Assembly (NCBI GenBank): GCA_030747675.1
Contig: JASLKH010000044.1
Location: 1 to 33,695, forward strand
From: Candidatus Thalassarchaeaceae archaeon
GTDB lineage: Archaea > Thermoplasmatota > Poseidoniia > Poseidoniales > Thalassarchaeaceae
DNA: 33,695 nt
Direction of reading: 5' to 3'
A program made the translations under genes and the position numbers. Shown piece after piece: positions 5,251-33,421 of this stretch (position 1 is the first letter of the stretch; the number at the start of each line of letters is the position of its first letter). The notes under the pieces are model-generated. The model saw only the letters and a list, made by a program, of their open reading frames with translations. It made no database searches and was not told the DNA's origin.

Positions 5251-5844
5251 ATGGAAGATGGTACAAATTATACTGCATTCAGTAGTCGAGGATTACTTGA
5301 TGTTATTGGGGAAGTCAATGATAATGCCCTCAAGGCTTCACGAATGAAAGATTTCATTTCAGTCCTTGGTGGCCGATTTTTGAATTGGGCACAAAGAAAA
5401 TCACTATTCCCCCTGCATTTGGGGATAAAGTGCTGTGCTTTGGAAATGGCAGCTTCTGGTGGACCAAGATTCGATGCTGAAAGCTTTGGAGTAGTATTTC
5501 GAAGCAGCCCTCGTCAATGTGATGTTTTACTAGTTAATGGTCCAATCTCAAAGAAATTTGCAGACCCCATTGTCCGCCTTTGGGAACAAATGCCAGAACC
5601 AAAGTGGTGTATTGCCATGGGTGAATGTGCAATTTCTGGTGGTCCTTACTATCAGTCCTACAATATTCTTGAAGGAGTTGATACGATAATTCCCGTTGAT
5701 GTTTACATTCCAGGGTGCCCCCCTAGGCCCGAGGCTCTGATAGACGGGTTTAGCAAATTACGCGAGAAGATTATCCGAATAGGAGCAGTACCAAGTAATG
5801 AGGAAGAAGTACGTGGAACTCCAATCATTATCGCAGACGATTGA
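5251..5844 (+). CDS. nuoB: NADH-quinone oxidoreductase-like subunit B, carries cluster N2
   Basis: 197 residues. It is the hydrophilic subunit that holds the terminal 4Fe-4S cluster N2, which reduces quinone. Visible ligand motifs are KCCALEM (tandem cysteines), MGECAISGG and PGCPPRPE, matching the NuoB/NdhK family. ATG 5251 is preferred over an in-frame TTG at 5248 because GAGGTGA, overlapping the nuoA stop, sits 4-5 nt before it. Length and motifs are complete. Nothing suggests truncation. It acts on the cytoplasmic face with NuoC, D and I. Confidence 0.97.
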   Translation: MEDGTNYTAFSSRGLLDVIGEVNDNALKASRMKDFISVLGGRFLNWAQRKSLFPLHLGIKCCALEMAASGGPRFDAESFGVVFRSSPRQCDVLLVNGPISKKFADPIVRLWEQMPEPKWCIAMGECAISGGPYYQSYNILEGVDTIIPVDVYIPGCPPRPEALIDGFSKLREKIIRIGAVPSNEEEVRGTPIIIADD

Positions 5845-20827: not shown

Positions 20828-20957
20828 GGGAACAATTGCGCCACTATCAGTAACATCCTTCAAGGCTTTCGACGGCGAAGGCCAAAAAGTGCTATGCTGG
20901 GTGTTGAATTGACCTTTGGGAAGCAGGATTGAAGTGCCTCTCCCTCCACCGGTATGT

Positions 20958-23660
20958 ATGGGTCGGCATCTTCGAGCACATTCTGTGTGTGTTTTACTAC
21001 TGATGACTCCACTCCTAATATTACTCCCAACTGCAACAGGTGAGACAGTAGGTTCAGTATCCTTCGATAGCAGCGGGATAACTACACGTTCAGATCCCAT
21101 TGAAGGAAACTCAGTCATCATTGATTTTTCCTTACAGAATATAGGAGGTACTTTGGCCGAGAATGTTGCAATCGAATTCCACAAATCGAATTTTGTCTCT
21201 GGGGAACCTGCTGCAGCGACCCTGATTGACATAGATGCTGGTGAGTGGGCAGTGGTTAATTTCACTTGGACAAATTTGCAATATGGTTCTCAAGATATTT
21301 GGATTAAAGTTTCCCATTCAGGGGAAAGCCAGTTGATTTCAAAGTCATTTGATGTAGCCGGTTTACCAAATCTCCGCTTTGAAATTTTTGAACTAAATCC
21401 TGTAAATAATGTCCATGAAGGTGATTTAGTCGATGTTCAAATCCAAGTTGAAAATTCTGGACATGCAGTAGCCGATGCATCACACATGGAGTTGATTTTT
21501 GCAGGCTCATCGAGTTTGATTAGTGTACCTTCGTTACAAATTGGGGCTAATTATTGGTTGAATCAATCAGGAGTTGCACCAGCAGCAGGAACTTACGACA
21601 TTAGTGGAGTATTGAATGCAGATAGTTCAGATGAGGTCGTAGAATCATCTACAGGAGACAATCAAGAAACACGGACACTAAATGTGGAGAGTTTACCTGA
21701 TTATATTCATTCATTGGGGCCAGTTGTAGTACAGAGTTCAGGTCTTGCAGGCCCATGGTCGATTACAGGTACTATTGCACGTGAATTAGGCTCTGGGGAT
21801 TCTTCCATACCTCTGCACCTTTCAATTTCAGATGGTATAACATTGGAAATAATTAACTTACAATTCACTCAGTCTGATGAATTTGCAGAATATGAATTTG
21901 TTGTGCAAACTGCTGATTTGACTAATCAGAACCCAGGTGGTACCGTTTTAGAAGTTGAGATTGATCCCATGGAAAGTGTACTACAATCAAATTCATTCAA
22001 TGATATGCAACAAGTTTTGGTTACTATACACCAAGAGCCAAATGTTGTAGTCACTCCGGCTGCAGTGGCGCGCCCCTCATCAGTAACCCCTGGGGAATCA
22101 GTTACTTTCGATGTAAGTTTACAGAATGTCGGTATGGTTTCTGTAACTGGGGTAATTTCAGCAACTTTTGATGGTGTTGAATTACAATCTCAAAGTATTA
22201 TTATTCCGGCATCAAATACTGGCACACAGGGACAGCGCACTGTATCTTTCACTGCTACAGTCGGTGGTGGTGAAAGCAGAGACGTCCCATTCACGGCTTC
22301 TTGGCAGAAAGAAACAACATCACATGATCGGATCGCTGAAGACAATACAGCCACAGGGTATGTCCACCTCAATTCTGATTTACAACTTCGACTATTGCAG
22401 ACTACTGAAGGTTGGTCACCAGGATTACCATTACATCCTGGATATGAGTACGTCTATTCGATAGATGTCGTAGCTTCGCAGTCATCAGGGTCAGAGACAT
22501 TTGAGTGCCGGGATAATAATCGTGGAGTCACCTTTGATGTAGAAACATTGCAATTTGAAGAAGGAGAAACAAAATCACTCTCTTGTGAAATTGATATTGA
22601 GAAGAATCTAAGAGGGTCAATTGAATTAACAATTATTTCCTATGGAGGGAGCACATCATCTTATTCAAAAATTTGGAATATTGAGAGTTCTGATGACCAA
22701 TCATCAACAGAAAGTGAGAATAGATCTACAACAGTAATATTACTTATTTTGGGTGGTGCTCTAGCAATTATTTCTTTGATTGCAGCAGTTATTCTTACAC
22801 GGAGAGGTTTAGCCAATACAGAACGTGAAACATGGGCATTATGTCCAGCATGTGAAGGAGAAATCGAAGGTGATGAGGACACATGTCCTTATTGCGACTT
22901 CAATTTAGACATAGCACGGTCCAAATTTCATGATTGTGAATCTTGTAATGCAACAATTCCATCAATGATGGAACACTGTCCATATTGTGGCGAAGGTCAA
23001 GATTTGAGCAGTCATTATGACCGACGTGAAAGAAAATTCATCTCATTACCAGATTCCCAAGCTGATTCAGAAGTTGAACCAGATGATGATGAAGAGTCTG
23101 ATGAAGTTGTACGAGGATCTCAAATCTTTGAAGAGCAAGCTGCTGAAATGGGTTTCGCAGAAGATCAATGGGAAGGTGAATGGGATTCAAAACTTGATGA
23201 AGCCGAATCTTACTTCGATGATAAAGAGGAAGCGAGAATTGCTGCTGAGGAAATGGGAGCAGAATCTGAAGAAGTTGACGATGTCGTTGGTGAAACTGAA
23301 CTCAGTCAAGCAATGGAAGAAATGCCAGAACATGATCTTGATGCCTTCCTCGGCGATGTTGAAAAACGTCAACATCTATCTGACGAAGATGTTGAGCTGT
23401 CGGCATCTGATGCCCATTACCGTGAAAAGTTGTTTGAAATGACTGGTGAAGATGGTGTATTGCCCGGTCAATCGGTTGATGTTGAAGCAATAGTTGACAA
23501 TACCGTGGTTGGTAATGAATTACGAAGCGCCAGTAGCGATTTTACCGTGACCGATGGAGAACCTTCTCCATCAGTTGAATCAGAGACTGATGAGGGATCT
23601 GAAGCAGTCAAAGACACATCGAAACGCAGGTCTGTACGTCGCAGAAAGAGGGATGATTGA
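20958..23660 (+). CDS. Membrane protein with outer CARDB repeats and inner double zinc ribbon
   Basis: 900 residues from ATG 20958, which directly begins a signal peptide (CVLLLMTPLLILLPTATG); GTG 20934 is possible. Outside the membrane are CARDB-type modules (FSLQNIGGTLAENVAIEF, IQVENSGHAVADASHME, DVSLQNVGMVSVTGVI). A helix near residues 592-615 is followed inside by two zinc-ribbon halves: CPAC...CPYC beginning at Cys 629 and CESC...CPYC after it. A long very acidic region then ends in a basic tail (KRRSVRRRKRDD). The arrangement suggests a surface sensor or structural protein with a cytoplasmic protein- or nucleic-acid-binding part. It is divergent from the Ig-like gene, sharing about 130 nt of upstream DNA. 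Confidence 0.85.
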   Translation: MGRHLRAHSVCVLLLMTPLLILLPTATGETVGSVSFDSSGITTRSDPIEGNSVIIDFSLQNIGGTLAENVAIEFHKSNFVSGEPAAATLIDIDAGEWAVVNFTWTNLQYGSQDIWIKVSHSGESQLISKSFDVAGLPNLRFEIFELNPVNNVHEGDLVDVQIQVENSGHAVADASHMELIFAGSSSLISVPSLQIGANYWLNQSGVAPAAGTYDISGVLNADSSDEVVESSTGDNQETRTLNVESLPDYIHSLGPVVVQSSGLAGPWSITGTIARELGSGDSSIPLHLSISDGITLEIINLQFTQSDEFAEYEFVVQTADLTNQNPGGTVLEVEIDPMESVLQSNSFNDMQQVLVTIHQEPNVVVTPAAVARPSSVTPGESVTFDVSLQNVGMVSVTGVISATFDGVELQSQSIIIPASNTGTQGQRTVSFTATVGGGESRDVPFTASWQKETTSHDRIAEDNTATGYVHLNSDLQLRLLQTTEGWSPGLPLHPGYEYVYSIDVVASQSSGSETFECRDNNRGVTFDVETLQFEEGETKSLSCEIDIEKNLRGSIELTIISYGGSTSSYSKIWNIESSDDQSSTESENRSTTVILLILGGALAIISLIAAVILTRRGLANTERETWALCPACEGEIEGDEDTCPYCDFNLDIARSKFHDCESCNATIPSMMEHCPYCGEGQDLSSHYDRRERKFISLPDSQADSEVEPDDDEESDEVVRGSQIFEEQAAEMGFAEDQWEGEWDSKLDEAESYFDDKEEARIAAEEMGAESEEVDDVVGETELSQAMEEMPEHDLDAFLGDVEKRQHLSDEDVELSASDAHYREKLFEMTGEDGVLPGQSVDVEAIVDNTVVGNELRSASSDFTVTDGEPSPSVESETDEGSEAVKDTSKRRSVRRRKRDD

Positions 23661-23721
23661 ATATCATTTGACCGTCATAAAGAAATGTACTAGATTCTAC
23701 CGCCTATTTGGGGGAGATACA

Positions 23722-24381
23722 TTGTCCACACTACGGCGACAGACAATTAGTGCTACATTGGCGCTTCTTTTCGTGTCGATGGCCCTTCCTGGTTGCCTTT
23801 CTCTAGTGATTGGTCGAGAGTTAATGGAAGGTGCTCGTGGTATGCCAGAAACTAAACCAAAATACACCTCTTATGATTTATCACACACTTGGCAAAACTC
23901 AACAGAATTAGACGATTACCAAGAAAGCAAAACTCAACTCATTCCAATCGACCACACTGTCCAAGAAATACTAATACAATTCCAGGTTTCAATTCGTAAT
24001 GATGACATTGATGACCTTGCAGAGCCCATTCTTGAAGCATTGAATGATGCAGGAATCACGCAAACAAATTTGGCTCAGCGATATGTTGAGGTATGGTTGT
24101 ATCCTTGTGAAGTTATGGACGATTGTGATTATATCTATCATGAAAGAACAAATGGTTCATTTGAACAGACTCAGACAAAATTCACTACAGACAATACTAC
24201 ATTTAAAGAAAGCACTTGGCGATTAGTTGTTGAAGGACAAGGCGTCGATGCAAGTTCCGTTCCGTTTGTTGGCTTCCAAGATTCATGGTTGCTTATTTTA
24301 AGTGTCAAACGCCCTTGTGTTGAATTTCCAGAAAGTAGTGGTGATGAAGACGAATGCATACCTAAGGTCGATTTAGAATAG
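23722..24381 (+). CDS. Small predicted lipoprotein
   Basis: 219 residues from TTG 23722. That codon follows GGGGGAGA by five bases and gives an N-terminus STLRRQTISATLALLFVSMA ending in LPGC, a textbook lipobox with the cysteine at residue 25. An in-frame ATG at 23653 overlaps the previous stop but would place 23 polar residues before the signal peptide. The mature part has no domain I recognise. It contains paired cysteines (YPCEVMDDCDY; RPCVEF...DECIPK) that could form disulfides. It may be co-transcribed with the zinc-ribbon membrane protein. It converges on the nuclease gene with a 2-nt gap. Confidence 0.75.
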   Translation: MSTLRRQTISATLALLFVSMALPGCLSLVIGRELMEGARGMPETKPKYTSYDLSHTWQNSTELDDYQESKTQLIPIDHTVQEILIQFQVSIRNDDIDDLAEPILEALNDAGITQTNLAQRYVEVWLYPCEVMDDCDYIYHERTNGSFEQTQTKFTTDNTTFKESTWRLVVEGQGVDASSVPFVGFQDSWLLILSVKRPCVEFPESSGDEDECIPKVDLE

Positions 24382-24383
24382 GA

Positions 24384-25601
24384 TTAAATTAGGCTTTGAG
24401 GACATTTTGATTGTCGTGAACAATTTTTGCATTTGCCAGGTCTCTCATGATTCCTTTTCGCGCCTCCTTCAATCATTAATCGCTGTATTTCTTTTATATC
24501 ACGGGATAAATCATCCCGTGCTTCATCATCCCAGGGTATCGTGAAAAGAGAATCAGCCCCATATCGTAATATTCCATACTCAGGAGTTGTGTTTGTAGTT
24601 TCAGCAACAAGTTGGATATATGCAAGTACTTGCATTCTATGACTTTGATGAAATTTCTTTGGCACCTTCCCGGTTTTTTGCTCAACGGGAATGTATTGAT
24701 TATCGATTACTAATATTTGATCAGGCCTACCTCGTAAACCAGTTTCTTCATCAATCAAAAGAATAGCACTTTCTCCTGAATCATCACTATAAGCAATTTC
24801 TTCATCACCTCCGAGGCCAATTCTTTCTCGAGAAATTTGTGCAATATTCCCAAATGAGAGAGCACGATGCAATCTCCAAGAGCAGATGAGTAGCCAGATT
24901 AGAGAAAGTACAATCAACCCAAAAGCGAATAAATTTCTATCTTTAGCATAGTGAATTGCAATACCATGTAAAGCAATTGCAATTGAACCGAGGAGCATCA
25001 AGGCCTCTAACGAACCACCTTTGATGTAATCATCTTCGTCACTAATTGAAAAGGGCGATTCAATTTTTAATTCATTAAACTCTTTACCTTCAAAGTGAGG
25101 TGGTTGAGCAAGTCCAAATGGACGCCCTAACCACCTTCTCCAAGGAACCCAAATTAGGACAATTGCAGTAATTAACCACACTAGAGCTAGGCTGACTAGA
25201 TAACGACCCATATCTTCAACAAAATTTTCAGAGATTTGTCCCTGATCTACGAATAGAAATGCCGCAGAGTCAGCTGAAAGAGCTATGACTACTGTAAACC
25301 ACCAAGACCAAATTACTAACTCGTGATTTGCACGAGACTCTTTTGTCTTGAATTCAACCATATCTTTGTGAATACGTTCATGCTCTTTCATTCCTTGAAT
25401 TAGAGCATCGCCTTCTCCACTTACACCGGCCTTGGATAATTGCCACGAAACTGGGCAGTATGCATGACGCTCAAGATCTGACGCAGACACTGGCAGAGCC
25501 AAACCATTGAAATCACTCCAATATCCATCTTTACGGAGTTTTCCGGCCGAAATTGGATTATCAAAGTCCATGGCCTCATCAACAGTTTTCTGAGGGGCCA
25601 T
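24384..25601 (-). CDS. Cas4-like PD-(D/E)XK nuclease with four inserted transmembrane helices
   Basis: 405 residues. The N-terminus has ASDLERHAYCP (Cys 49) and HERIH (74-78), as in Cas4/RecB-type exonucleases. The nuclease core is C-terminal: GLRGRPDQILVID (Asp 294), YIPVEQKTGK (Glu 307, Lys 309) and HRMQVLAYIQLV (Gln 324), then CKNCSRQSKCP (Cys 391, 394, 400). Cys 49 plus these three would bind a 4Fe-4S cluster as in Cas4. Between the halves, residues about 96-118, 134-152, 199-219 and 222-241 are hydrophobic helices, so the enzyme appears membrane-embedded. No CRISPR repeats or other cas genes are near. The likely role is DNA end processing or defence at the membrane, which is inference. 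ATG 25601 is used; ATG 25571 is an alternative. Confidence 0.8.
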   Translation of the reverse strand: MAPQKTVDEAMDFDNPISAGKLRKDGYWSDFNGLALPVSASDLERHAYCPVSWQLSKAGVSGEGDALIQGMKEHERIHKDMVEFKTKESRANHELVIWSWWFTVVIALSADSAAFLFVDQGQISENFVEDMGRYLVSLALVWLITAIVLIWVPWRRWLGRPFGLAQPPHFEGKEFNELKIESPFSISDEDDYIKGGSLEALMLLGSIAIALHGIAIHYAKDRNLFAFGLIVLSLIWLLICSWRLHRALSFGNIAQISRERIGLGGDEEIAYSDDSGESAILLIDEETGLRGRPDQILVIDNQYIPVEQKTGKVPKKFHQSHRMQVLAYIQLVAETTNTTPEYGILRYGADSLFTIPWDDEARDDLSRDIKEIQRLMIEGGAKRNHERPGKCKNCSRQSKCPQSLI

Positions 25602-25729: not shown

Positions 25730-25774
25730 ATGAAGAGGTGGAGGGTGGCGAGGCCGCACGAGGCATTCCAATGA
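25730..25774 (+). other. Possible 14-codon leader ORF overlapping rpsB start
   Basis: ATG 25730 opens a frame encoding MKRWRVARPHEAFQ and stops at the TGA inside ATGA of the rpsB start. The overlap is the same kind used for coupling within this window. Several GGTG/GAGG stretches inside it could serve as Shine-Dalgarno sites for rpsB. Coincidence cannot be excluded with so short a frame. Confidence 0.25.
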
Positions 25775-26379
25775 GTGAATCTCCACTAGTTCCCCATGAA
25801 ACTTACGAGGATCATGCAGTGCATATTGGCACTCAACAGAAGAGTGCTGATATGAAGCCATTCTTGAGTGATATTCGCGGCGATGGAAGCGGTTTGCATC
25901 TCATCGACCTAGAGCAAACAGATGAGAGAATACGTGTAGTTGCAGAGTTCTTGAATCGATATGATTGTAGTAGAATTTTAGTTGTCAGCGCGCGTCAGTA
26001 TGGACAGCGCCCCGCTCGAATGTTTGCTCAGGCAATTGGTGCGACTCACAACGTGGGGCGATTCATTCCAGGTACACTTACGAATCCGCGCCTACGAACA
26101 TATATTGAACCAGAATTGATTTTTGTTACAGACCCACAGGCAGATCAACAATCACTTTCAGAGGCAGTTAGCAGTGGTTTACCAGTTGTTGCAATTTGTG
26201 ATGCAAATAATAATCTCCGAAACGTTGATCTTTGCTTGCCAGCAAATAACAAAGGTCGCAGAAGTCTTTCTCTTCTTTACTGGATACTAGCAAGAGAAGT
26301 CCTGAAGGCGCGAGGTACAATGGACGATGATACTTGGGCTACTATGCAAGATGTAAATGACTGGGAATCTACGTTTTAG
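25771..26379 (+). CDS. rpsB: Small-subunit ribosomal protein uS2
   Basis: 202 residues from ATG 25771. The sequence is a standard archaeal S2: HAVHIGTQQKSADMKPFLS, TDERIRVVAEFL, ILVVSARQYGQRP, GRFIPGTLTNP, FVTDPQADQQS and LPANNKGRRSLSLLYWILAR. An in-frame GTG at 25738 would add 11 residues of low similarity. uS2 joins the small subunit late in assembly. In many archaea it neighbours enolase and RNA polymerase subunits; here the upstream neighbour is the divergent nuclease gene and the downstream one a tRNA-modifying enzyme. The C-terminus (DDDTWATMQDVNDWESTF) is acidic. Confidence 0.96.
   Translation: MSESPLVPHETYEDHAVHIGTQQKSADMKPFLSDIRGDGSGLHLIDLEQTDERIRVVAEFLNRYDCSRILVVSARQYGQRPARMFAQAIGATHNVGRFIPGTLTNPRLRTYIEPELIFVTDPQADQQSLSEAVSSGLPVVAICDANNNLRNVDLCLPANNKGRRSLSLLYWILAREVLKARGTMDDDTWATMQDVNDWESTF

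Positions 26380-32431: not shown

Positions 32432-33421
<990 letters not shown>

What the first reader, a model, noticed from the sequence alone, without database searches (positions are those of the whole stretch)
24384..25601. Membrane-embedded Cas4-like 4Fe-4S nuclease without CRISPR context
The protein keeps the Cas4 layout of one N-terminal Cys (49) and three C-terminal Cys (391, 394, 400) around PD-(D/E)XK motifs (Asp 294, Glu 307-x-Lys 309, Gln 324), but has about 145 residues with four hydrophobic helices spliced between Cys 49/His 78 and the nuclease core. A nuclease fixed at the membrane could process incoming or damaged DNA, act in uptake, or be a defence effector. No array or other cas gene is in the window.
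Basis: partly seen in the sequence, partly recalled or inferred. Interest (0 to 1): 0.75.

Follow-up and report, generated by a model that had tools for sequence, protein, structure and literature searches.

The report
Membrane-embedded Cas4-like nuclease of archaea
This gene encodes a DNA-cutting enzyme of the Cas4 kind that has membrane-spanning helices inserted in the middle of its catalytic domain; it has no CRISPR system around it, is an old and widely shared gene of one archaeal phylum, and in some relatives is made as two separate proteins that divide the active site between them.

Summary
Window 24384-25601(-) encodes a 405-aa Cas4/RecB-clade PD-(D/E)XK protein with four hydrophobic helices inserted between RecB motif I and motif II. 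One correction: the motif I histidine is His74 (GxxxH), not His78. C49, H74, D294, E307, K309, Q324, Y328, C391, C394 and C400 are invariant in 23 homologues of the same order and nearly so in 82 across the phylum. A deep-alignment AlphaFold2 model (pLDDT 87, pTM 0.80) has Cas4 of a Cas4-Cas1-Cas2 complex as its best PDB match, then Dna2. None of 60 genomes of the order carries Cas1. The gene is vertically inherited in a conserved housekeeping locus (rpsB) and can be lost cleanly.

The protein belongs to a phylum-wide (Thermoplasmatota) membrane family. The insert is a duplicated transmembrane hairpin present in 1, 2 or about 4 copies. In three other families it is cut in two inside the hairpin: a ~90-aa subunit carries the first Fe-S cysteine and catalytic histidine, a ~180-aa subunit carries D/E-K and three cysteines (40 pairs checked). 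I found no description of this in the papers held. Most likely role: a membrane-tethered, cytoplasm-facing single-strand DNA nuclease for housekeeping DNA processing. The activity is inferred.

The parts
24384..25601 (-). CDS of the membrane-embedded Cas4-like protein, 405 aa (P0001), stop codon included
   Evidence: ORF and translation; homologues in 87 of 146 genomes of the order
25368..25487 (-). Residues 39-78: N-terminal Cas4 part with Fe-S Cys49 (SASDLERxxYCP) and RecB motif I G70xxxH74
   Evidence: C49 82/82, G70 82/82, H74 81/82, H78 only 24/82; aligned with 4R5Q
25149..25310 (-). Residues 98-151: transmembrane hairpin 1; the helix of motif I runs straight into TM1 in the model (helix 65-119)
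   Evidence: hydropathy; AlphaFold2 secondary structure
24867..25013 (-). Residues 197-245: transmembrane hairpin 2, homologous to hairpin 1
   Evidence: hhalign of hairpin 1 against hairpin 2 in 48 homologues outside the order: probability 98.9, score 78.5; 60 block-shuffled controls max 22.6
24462..24758 (-). Residues 282-380: PD-(D/E)XK core with P293-D294, E307-x-K309 and Q324xxxY328
   Evidence: Pfam PF01930 and PF12705; strands 295-299 and 302-309, helix 319-336; Foldseek best match Cas4 8d3l
24402..24455 (-). Residues 383-400: RNH and the three C-terminal Fe-S cysteines C391, C394, C400
   Evidence: R383, H385, C391, C394, C400 82/82
25738..26379 (+). Divergent neighbour rpsB (ribosomal protein S2), conserved next to the nuclease gene in the order; stays in place when the nuclease is absent
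   Evidence: Pfam PF00318; synteny; genomes without the nuclease
23554..24381 (+). Convergent neighbour, predicted lipoprotein-like protein, conserved in place also where the nuclease is missing, so not an obligatory partner

Best explanation
It is a CRISPR-independent, membrane-anchored member of the Cas4/RecB 'iron-staple' clade of PD-(D/E)XK nucleases. The polypeptide starts in the cytoplasm with the helix that carries the first Fe-S cysteine and the motif I histidine. That helix continues into the membrane. One to about four copies of a transmembrane hairpin (two here) follow, and the chain returns to the cytoplasm as the D...ExK...QxxxY core and the three closing cysteines. The two cytoplasmic halves fold back into one Cas4-like nuclease held at the inner face of the membrane. 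Its most likely work is metal-dependent trimming or degradation of single-stranded DNA (ends, flaps, or strands arriving at or held near the membrane) as a housekeeping function of Thermoplasmatota. Architecture, motif conservation, fold and CRISPR independence are shown by computation. The Fe-S cluster, nuclease activity, DNA rather than RNA as substrate, and the cellular role are inferred.
For: Cas4 profile matches. Invariant catalytic and cysteine residues over 27-63% identity. AlphaFold2 with 82 sequences: pLDDT 87.1, pTM 0.80, all five models 85-87; Foldseek top hits are Cas4 of 8d3l/8d3q, then Dna2, with probability 1.00. Topology: K/R content is 0.175-0.217 in predicted inside segments and 0.089-0.102 in outside loops over 63 four-helix homologues, which puts both catalytic halves in the cytoplasm. 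All hydrophobic segments lie between motif I and motif II in 108 of 108 scored homologues. The hairpin is duplicated. In 40 split gene pairs the small subunit keeps the Cys and GxxxH and the large one keeps PD and CxxC...C in all 40 (ExK 39/40 by the regex used), with one membrane helix each apart from one large subunit scored with two. No Cas1 in 60 genomes and one PF01930 gene per matching genome. Conserved housekeeping locus and clean absences. [quoted passage not shown]
Against: No biochemical data were found for any member. The gene is absent from 7 of 11 sampled genera of family f1, which mostly have smaller genomes, so it is not essential everywhere. One homologue (L092, G183) carries a C-terminal TRAM domain (PF01938, E=1.2e-10), which hints at RNA. 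L097 has Asn for the catalytic Asp, and six of 82 have Asp for Glu307. Proximity of the four cysteines could not be measured on the model.
Confidence: 0.6

Rival explanations
1. Innate defence effector: a membrane-tethered nuclease that degrades viral DNA as it enters the cell or is triggered by infection, as in abortive-infection systems that pair membrane helices with a nuclease.
For: The Cas4 and PD-(D/E)XK families are common in defence, and PADLOC lists Cas4 and DruK models among the matches. Membrane placement suits meeting incoming DNA. Solo-Cas4 has been suggested to have unknown defence or repair roles (PMC5704561).
Against: No defence genes nearby; the window is complex I, ribosomal and metabolic genes. 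Locus and orientation are fixed across the order. The order's proteins form one clade. No homologue in viral contigs or phage records, and only CRISPR Cas4/Cas1 or plain Cas4-like matches in plasmids. Defence genes usually show a patchy, mobile distribution (general knowledge).
Confidence: 0.15
2. DNA-uptake or salvage nuclease: it degrades one strand of DNA imported through the membrane, for nutrient use or transformation, much as membrane nucleases work with competence channels.
For: Catalytic core at the cytoplasmic face of the membrane; many sampled genomes lacking it are smaller.
Against: No import channel gene was recognised next to it in the lineages examined. Neighbours differ between orders (GlmS/GlmU, Trm1, THEP1, rpsB), so no partner is indicated.
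Confidence: 0.2
3. RNA-directed enzyme: a membrane-associated RNase, perhaps acting on translating ribosomes or membrane-bound mRNA.
For: One homologue has a TRAM RNA-binding domain at its C-terminus. The gene lies beside rpsB in the window's order.
Against: The characterised Cas4, Dna2, RecB and MGME1 proteins, which are among the closest structures, act on DNA. TRAM was seen in one genome only.
Confidence: 0.1
4. The nuclease is degenerate and the protein is now mainly a membrane or Fe-S structural protein.
For: Scattered substitutions at catalytic positions in single members (Asn for Asp in L097; Asp for Glu in six of 82).
Against: Catalytic residues are about as conserved as the cysteines across the phylum and are kept in the 40 split pairs; the one ExK that the regex missed (L252) reads IEMK.
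Confidence: 0.05

Closest known systems
Cas4 family nucleases, PF01930/TIGR00372 (SSO0001, Pcal_0546), above all solo-Cas4 (Hudaiberdiev et al. 2017, PMC5704561)
   Same: RecB motifs I, II, III and QhXXY; one N-terminal and three C-terminal cysteines; Foldseek best match; encoded outside CRISPR loci; vertical inheritance
   Different: About 180 extra residues with duplicated transmembrane hairpins between motif I and motif II; 405 aa against 171-221 aa (the DUF83 range in PMC4176176); conserved RNH before the last cysteines; some relatives split into two genes. A transmembrane form is not mentioned in the main text of the 2017 survey.
Dna2 nuclease domain
   Same: Iron-staple RecB-like nuclease fold; second-best fold match
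   Different: No helicase domain; membrane helices instead
PF12705 PDDEXK_1 (AddB/RecB-type and UvrD-Cas4-like)
   Same: The profile also matches above its cut-off, 31.8 against 22 bits
   Different: No helicase fusion or partner seen
Cas4 domain of type I-MYXAN Cas4/Cas1 fusions on cyanobacterial plasmids
   Same: Closest plasmid matches to the core, 30-35% identity over about 125 aa
   Different: Fused to Cas1 in CRISPR loci; no matching membrane region

Membership tests
Cas4 family (PF01930 / TIGR00372) | Profile match above the curated cut-off | tested here: met
   PF01930 36.1 bits against 22.7. TIGR00372 63.4 against 65 is just missed; only the C-terminal half of the profile is covered because the N-terminal part is displaced by the insert.
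Cas4 family (PF01930 / TIGR00372) | RecB motifs: motif I His, motif II Asp, motif III ExK, QxxxY | tested here: met
   H74 81/82, D294 81/82, E307 76/82 plus 6 Asp, K309 82/82, Q324 79/82, Y328 82/82
Cas4 family (PF01930 / TIGR00372) | Four cysteines, one N-terminal and three C-terminal, binding a Fe-S cluster | tested here: inconclusive
   All four cysteines 82/82; binding of a cluster, and their proximity in the model, not measured
Cas4 family (PF01930 / TIGR00372) | Cas4-like three-dimensional fold | tested here: met
   Model pLDDT 87, best PDB match Cas4 in 8d3l, E=7e-5, probability 1.00
Cas4 family (PF01930 / TIGR00372) | Compact soluble protein of about 171-221 aa | tested here: not met
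   405 aa with four transmembrane helices inserted; size range from PMC4176176
CAS-Cas4 (CRISPR adaptation) | Encoded with cas1/cas2 in a CRISPR locus | tested here: not met
   No Cas1 in 60 genomes of the order while the control genomes ring; no array in the window
solo-Cas4 | Cas4 gene outside CRISPR loci, mainly vertically inherited | tested here: met
   the order's proteins form one clade, support 100/99
Known defence systems (PADLOC) | Match to a non-Cas4 defence system or defence-gene neighbours | tested here: not met
   Mainly generic Cas4 models, with weaker Cas1-fusion and DruK matches to the same nuclease core; neighbours are housekeeping genes
Cas4 family (PF01930 / TIGR00372) | Metal-dependent ssDNA nuclease activity | not testable with these tools
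   Needs biochemistry

The most novel reading that the evidence does not exclude
Thermoplasmatota possess a previously undescribed family of membrane-integral Cas4-type nucleases in which the catalytic domain is interrupted by a repeatable transmembrane hairpin. In several lineages the enzyme is a two-gene heterodimer whose active site and Fe-S cluster are completed only when two single-pass membrane proteins meet, so that nuclease activity could be switched by assembly in the membrane.
Probability: 0.45. Interest if true: 0.8.

Novelty: new variant of a known kind. Interest (0 to 1): 0.62.

Why it matters
What solo-Cas4 proteins do is an open question. A Cas4 fixed at the membrane, kept across an archaeal phylum and in an order where no Cas1 was found, points to a non-immune role for this nuclease clade and makes it testable. 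The architecture is unusual: a soluble nuclease fold interrupted by membrane helices between two catalytic motifs, with hairpins gained or lost in multiples and, in some lineages, the fold divided between two proteins. The split form predicts an enzyme whose Fe-S cluster takes one cysteine from one subunit and three from another.

Tried and rejected
His78 as the conserved histidine was rejected; His74 is the conserved one. Fusion in G092/G031 (636-639 aa frames) was rejected: the extra N-terminal sequence is read-through upstream frame without a plausible domain. The neighbouring lipoprotein as a partner was rejected: it stays in place in genomes that lack the nuclease. Assembly error as the source of the split genes was rejected: it is found in all 30 f16 loci examined, several of them single-contig genomes, and in f27, f6 and a second copy in f35, with both parts conserved. 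Programmed -1 frameshifting at the f16 junction is disfavoured: the codons before the stop vary (TTA, CTA, ATA, TCA, ACA, TTT) and form no slippery heptamer, and ATG, TTG or CTG occupy the same start position in some genomes. The first genome-contig scan with the single protein found nothing. Occurrence in other archaeal phyla could not be tested: the genome search accepts only genome handles, and all I had were of this phylum, and the contig scan kept only the 80 best of 395 relatives.

Full report
CHECK OF THE OBSERVATION. The ORF at 24384-25601 on the minus strand is real: 405 aa from an ATG. Its C-terminal half matches Cas4 profiles in Pfam (PF01930, 36.1 bits, cut-off 22.7), NCBIfam (TIGR00372, 63.4 bits, cut-off 65) and PADLOC. 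Homologues occur in 87 of 146 genomes of the order, nearly all of full length. In a 23-sequence alignment (45-63% identity) C49, G70, H74, D294, E307, K309, Q324, Y328, C391, C394 and C400 are invariant. In 82 sequences across the phylum they stay nearly so, while H78 is found in only 24. The alignment to 4R5Q places both halves on Cas4.

THE MEMBRANE INSERT. H74 to D294 is 220 residues, against 37 in SSO0001 (PMC4176176), so about 180 residues are inserted between motif I and motif II. They hold four hydrophobic helices. In 108 homologues that could be scored, every hydrophobic segment lies inside this insert and none outside: 4 segments in 85 proteins, 3 above threshold in 16, 2 in 6 and 8 in 1. 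Charge distribution over 63 four-helix proteins puts both catalytic halves on the positive, cytoplasmic side. An AlphaFold2 model with 82 sequences reaches pLDDT 87.1 and pTM 0.80; the motif I helix runs unbroken into TM1 (residues 65-119), and the core shows strands 295-299 and 302-309 followed by helix 319-336. The same protein with 23 sequences gave pLDDT 74.5. Foldseek against the PDB gives Cas4 in the type I-C Cas4-Cas1-Cas2 complex as best match (8d3l, E=7e-5), then Dna2, Cas4/Cas1 and MGME1.

A REPEATED HAIRPIN. The first and second transmembrane hairpins of the four-helix proteins are homologous: hhalign probability 98.9 and score 78.5 over 59 columns, while 60 block-shuffled controls reached at most 22.6 and a reversed control 13.5. 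Spacing between the YC motif and the PD motif grows in steps consistent with hairpin number: about 142-146 with one hairpin, about 201 with two, 423 with four. So one to about four copies are found in the phylum.

A SPLIT FORM. In families f16, f27 and f6, and in a second copy in G236 (f35), the protein is encoded by two adjacent or overlapping genes cut inside the hairpin. In 40 pairs the small product keeps the cysteine and GxxxH, and the large one keeps the PD, QxxxY and CxxC...C motifs; ExK is met in 39 by the regex used, and the remaining one (L252) reads IEMK. One hydrophobic helix is found in each product, apart from one large subunit scored with two. In f16, 38 of 45 genomes carry the large subunit, with open frames of 178-232 aa, and the junction was read in 30. 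The catalytic site and the Fe-S ligands must then be completed by two polypeptides meeting in the membrane. This is inference from conservation, not shown biochemically.

CONTEXT AND DISTRIBUTION. No Cas1 was found in 60 genomes of the order although the control genomes rang, and this gene is the only PF01930 match per matching genome. In the order the gene sits between a predicted lipoprotein gene and rpsB in nearly every genome examined. In genera of f1 that lack it, the lipoprotein and rpsB genes lie about 100 bp apart, so the nuclease alone is missing. Elsewhere in the phylum the neighbours are other housekeeping genes (glmU, glmS, trm1, THEP1, named here from their sequences and not by a profile search) with no constant partner. 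The window itself encodes a complex I operon, a RIO kinase, rpsB, a dihydrouridine synthase, regulators and a fatty-acid oxidation protein. With the 23-sequence profile, 186 of 293 genomes of the phylum gave a match, a lower bound. A scan of GTDB contigs confirmed 395 relatives, and the 80 kept are titled Thermoplasmatota, Methanomassiliicoccales or unclassified euryarchaeotes. No relative was found in viral contigs or phage records, and plasmid hits are only CRISPR Cas4/Cas1 or Cas4-like domains. The order's proteins form one clade.

INTERPRETATION. The best-supported reading is a membrane-tethered, CRISPR-independent Cas4-clade nuclease working at the cytoplasmic face. [quoted passage not shown] Defence is disfavoured by the fixed locus and vertical inheritance. 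Uptake, repair and RNA roles remain open; the single TRAM fusion is the only pointer to RNA.

NOVELTY. The main text of the 2017 survey of Cas4 family nucleases does not mention transmembrane Cas4 or Thermoplasmata, and seven searches of the held open-access literature found no description. Subscription papers are not covered. I file it as a new variant of a known kind: a membrane-integral branch of solo-Cas4.

Noticed in passing
L233-L262, e.g. L234 and L098 (about 5370-5392): Junction of the split genes in family f16: the sequence GRGGTGATNNTATAG recurs, a Shine-Dalgarno-like stretch followed by ATA overlapping the stop of the upstream gene. The codon at the expected start is ATA in 23 of 30 genomes and ATG, TTG or CTG in a few; some have no ATG/GTG/TTG nearby. 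This suggests initiation at AUA by termination-reinitiation.
   Followed up: partly
L092:4929-6884 (G183): A homologue with many membrane helices carries a C-terminal TRAM domain (PF01938, E=1.2e-10), a possible RNA link.
   Followed up: partly
window 24384-25601, residues D111 and H212: A charged Asp in TM1 and a His in TM3 are invariant in 23 homologues of the order, unusual for a mere anchor.
   Followed up: no
L078:7717-9174 and G141:C17: Two genomes of genus g20 have longer frames (486-487 aa); in L078 an extra extracytoplasmic-looking domain of about 80 residues lies between TM1 and TM2.
   Followed up: no
L195 (G022:C6:83000-87149): A broken second copy of the gene, spread over several frames, in a genome that also has an intact copy.
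   Followed up: partly
window 20916-23660: Large protein with CARDB repeats, a membrane segment and a double zinc ribbon, next to the nuclease locus and conserved with it in the order.
   Followed up: no
window 32967-33086: 12-nt coding tandem repeat (PE-rich protein) at the right end of the window.
   Followed up: no
G236 (f35), L086 and L187: One genome holds both a one-gene four-helix form and a split two-gene form.
   Followed up: partly
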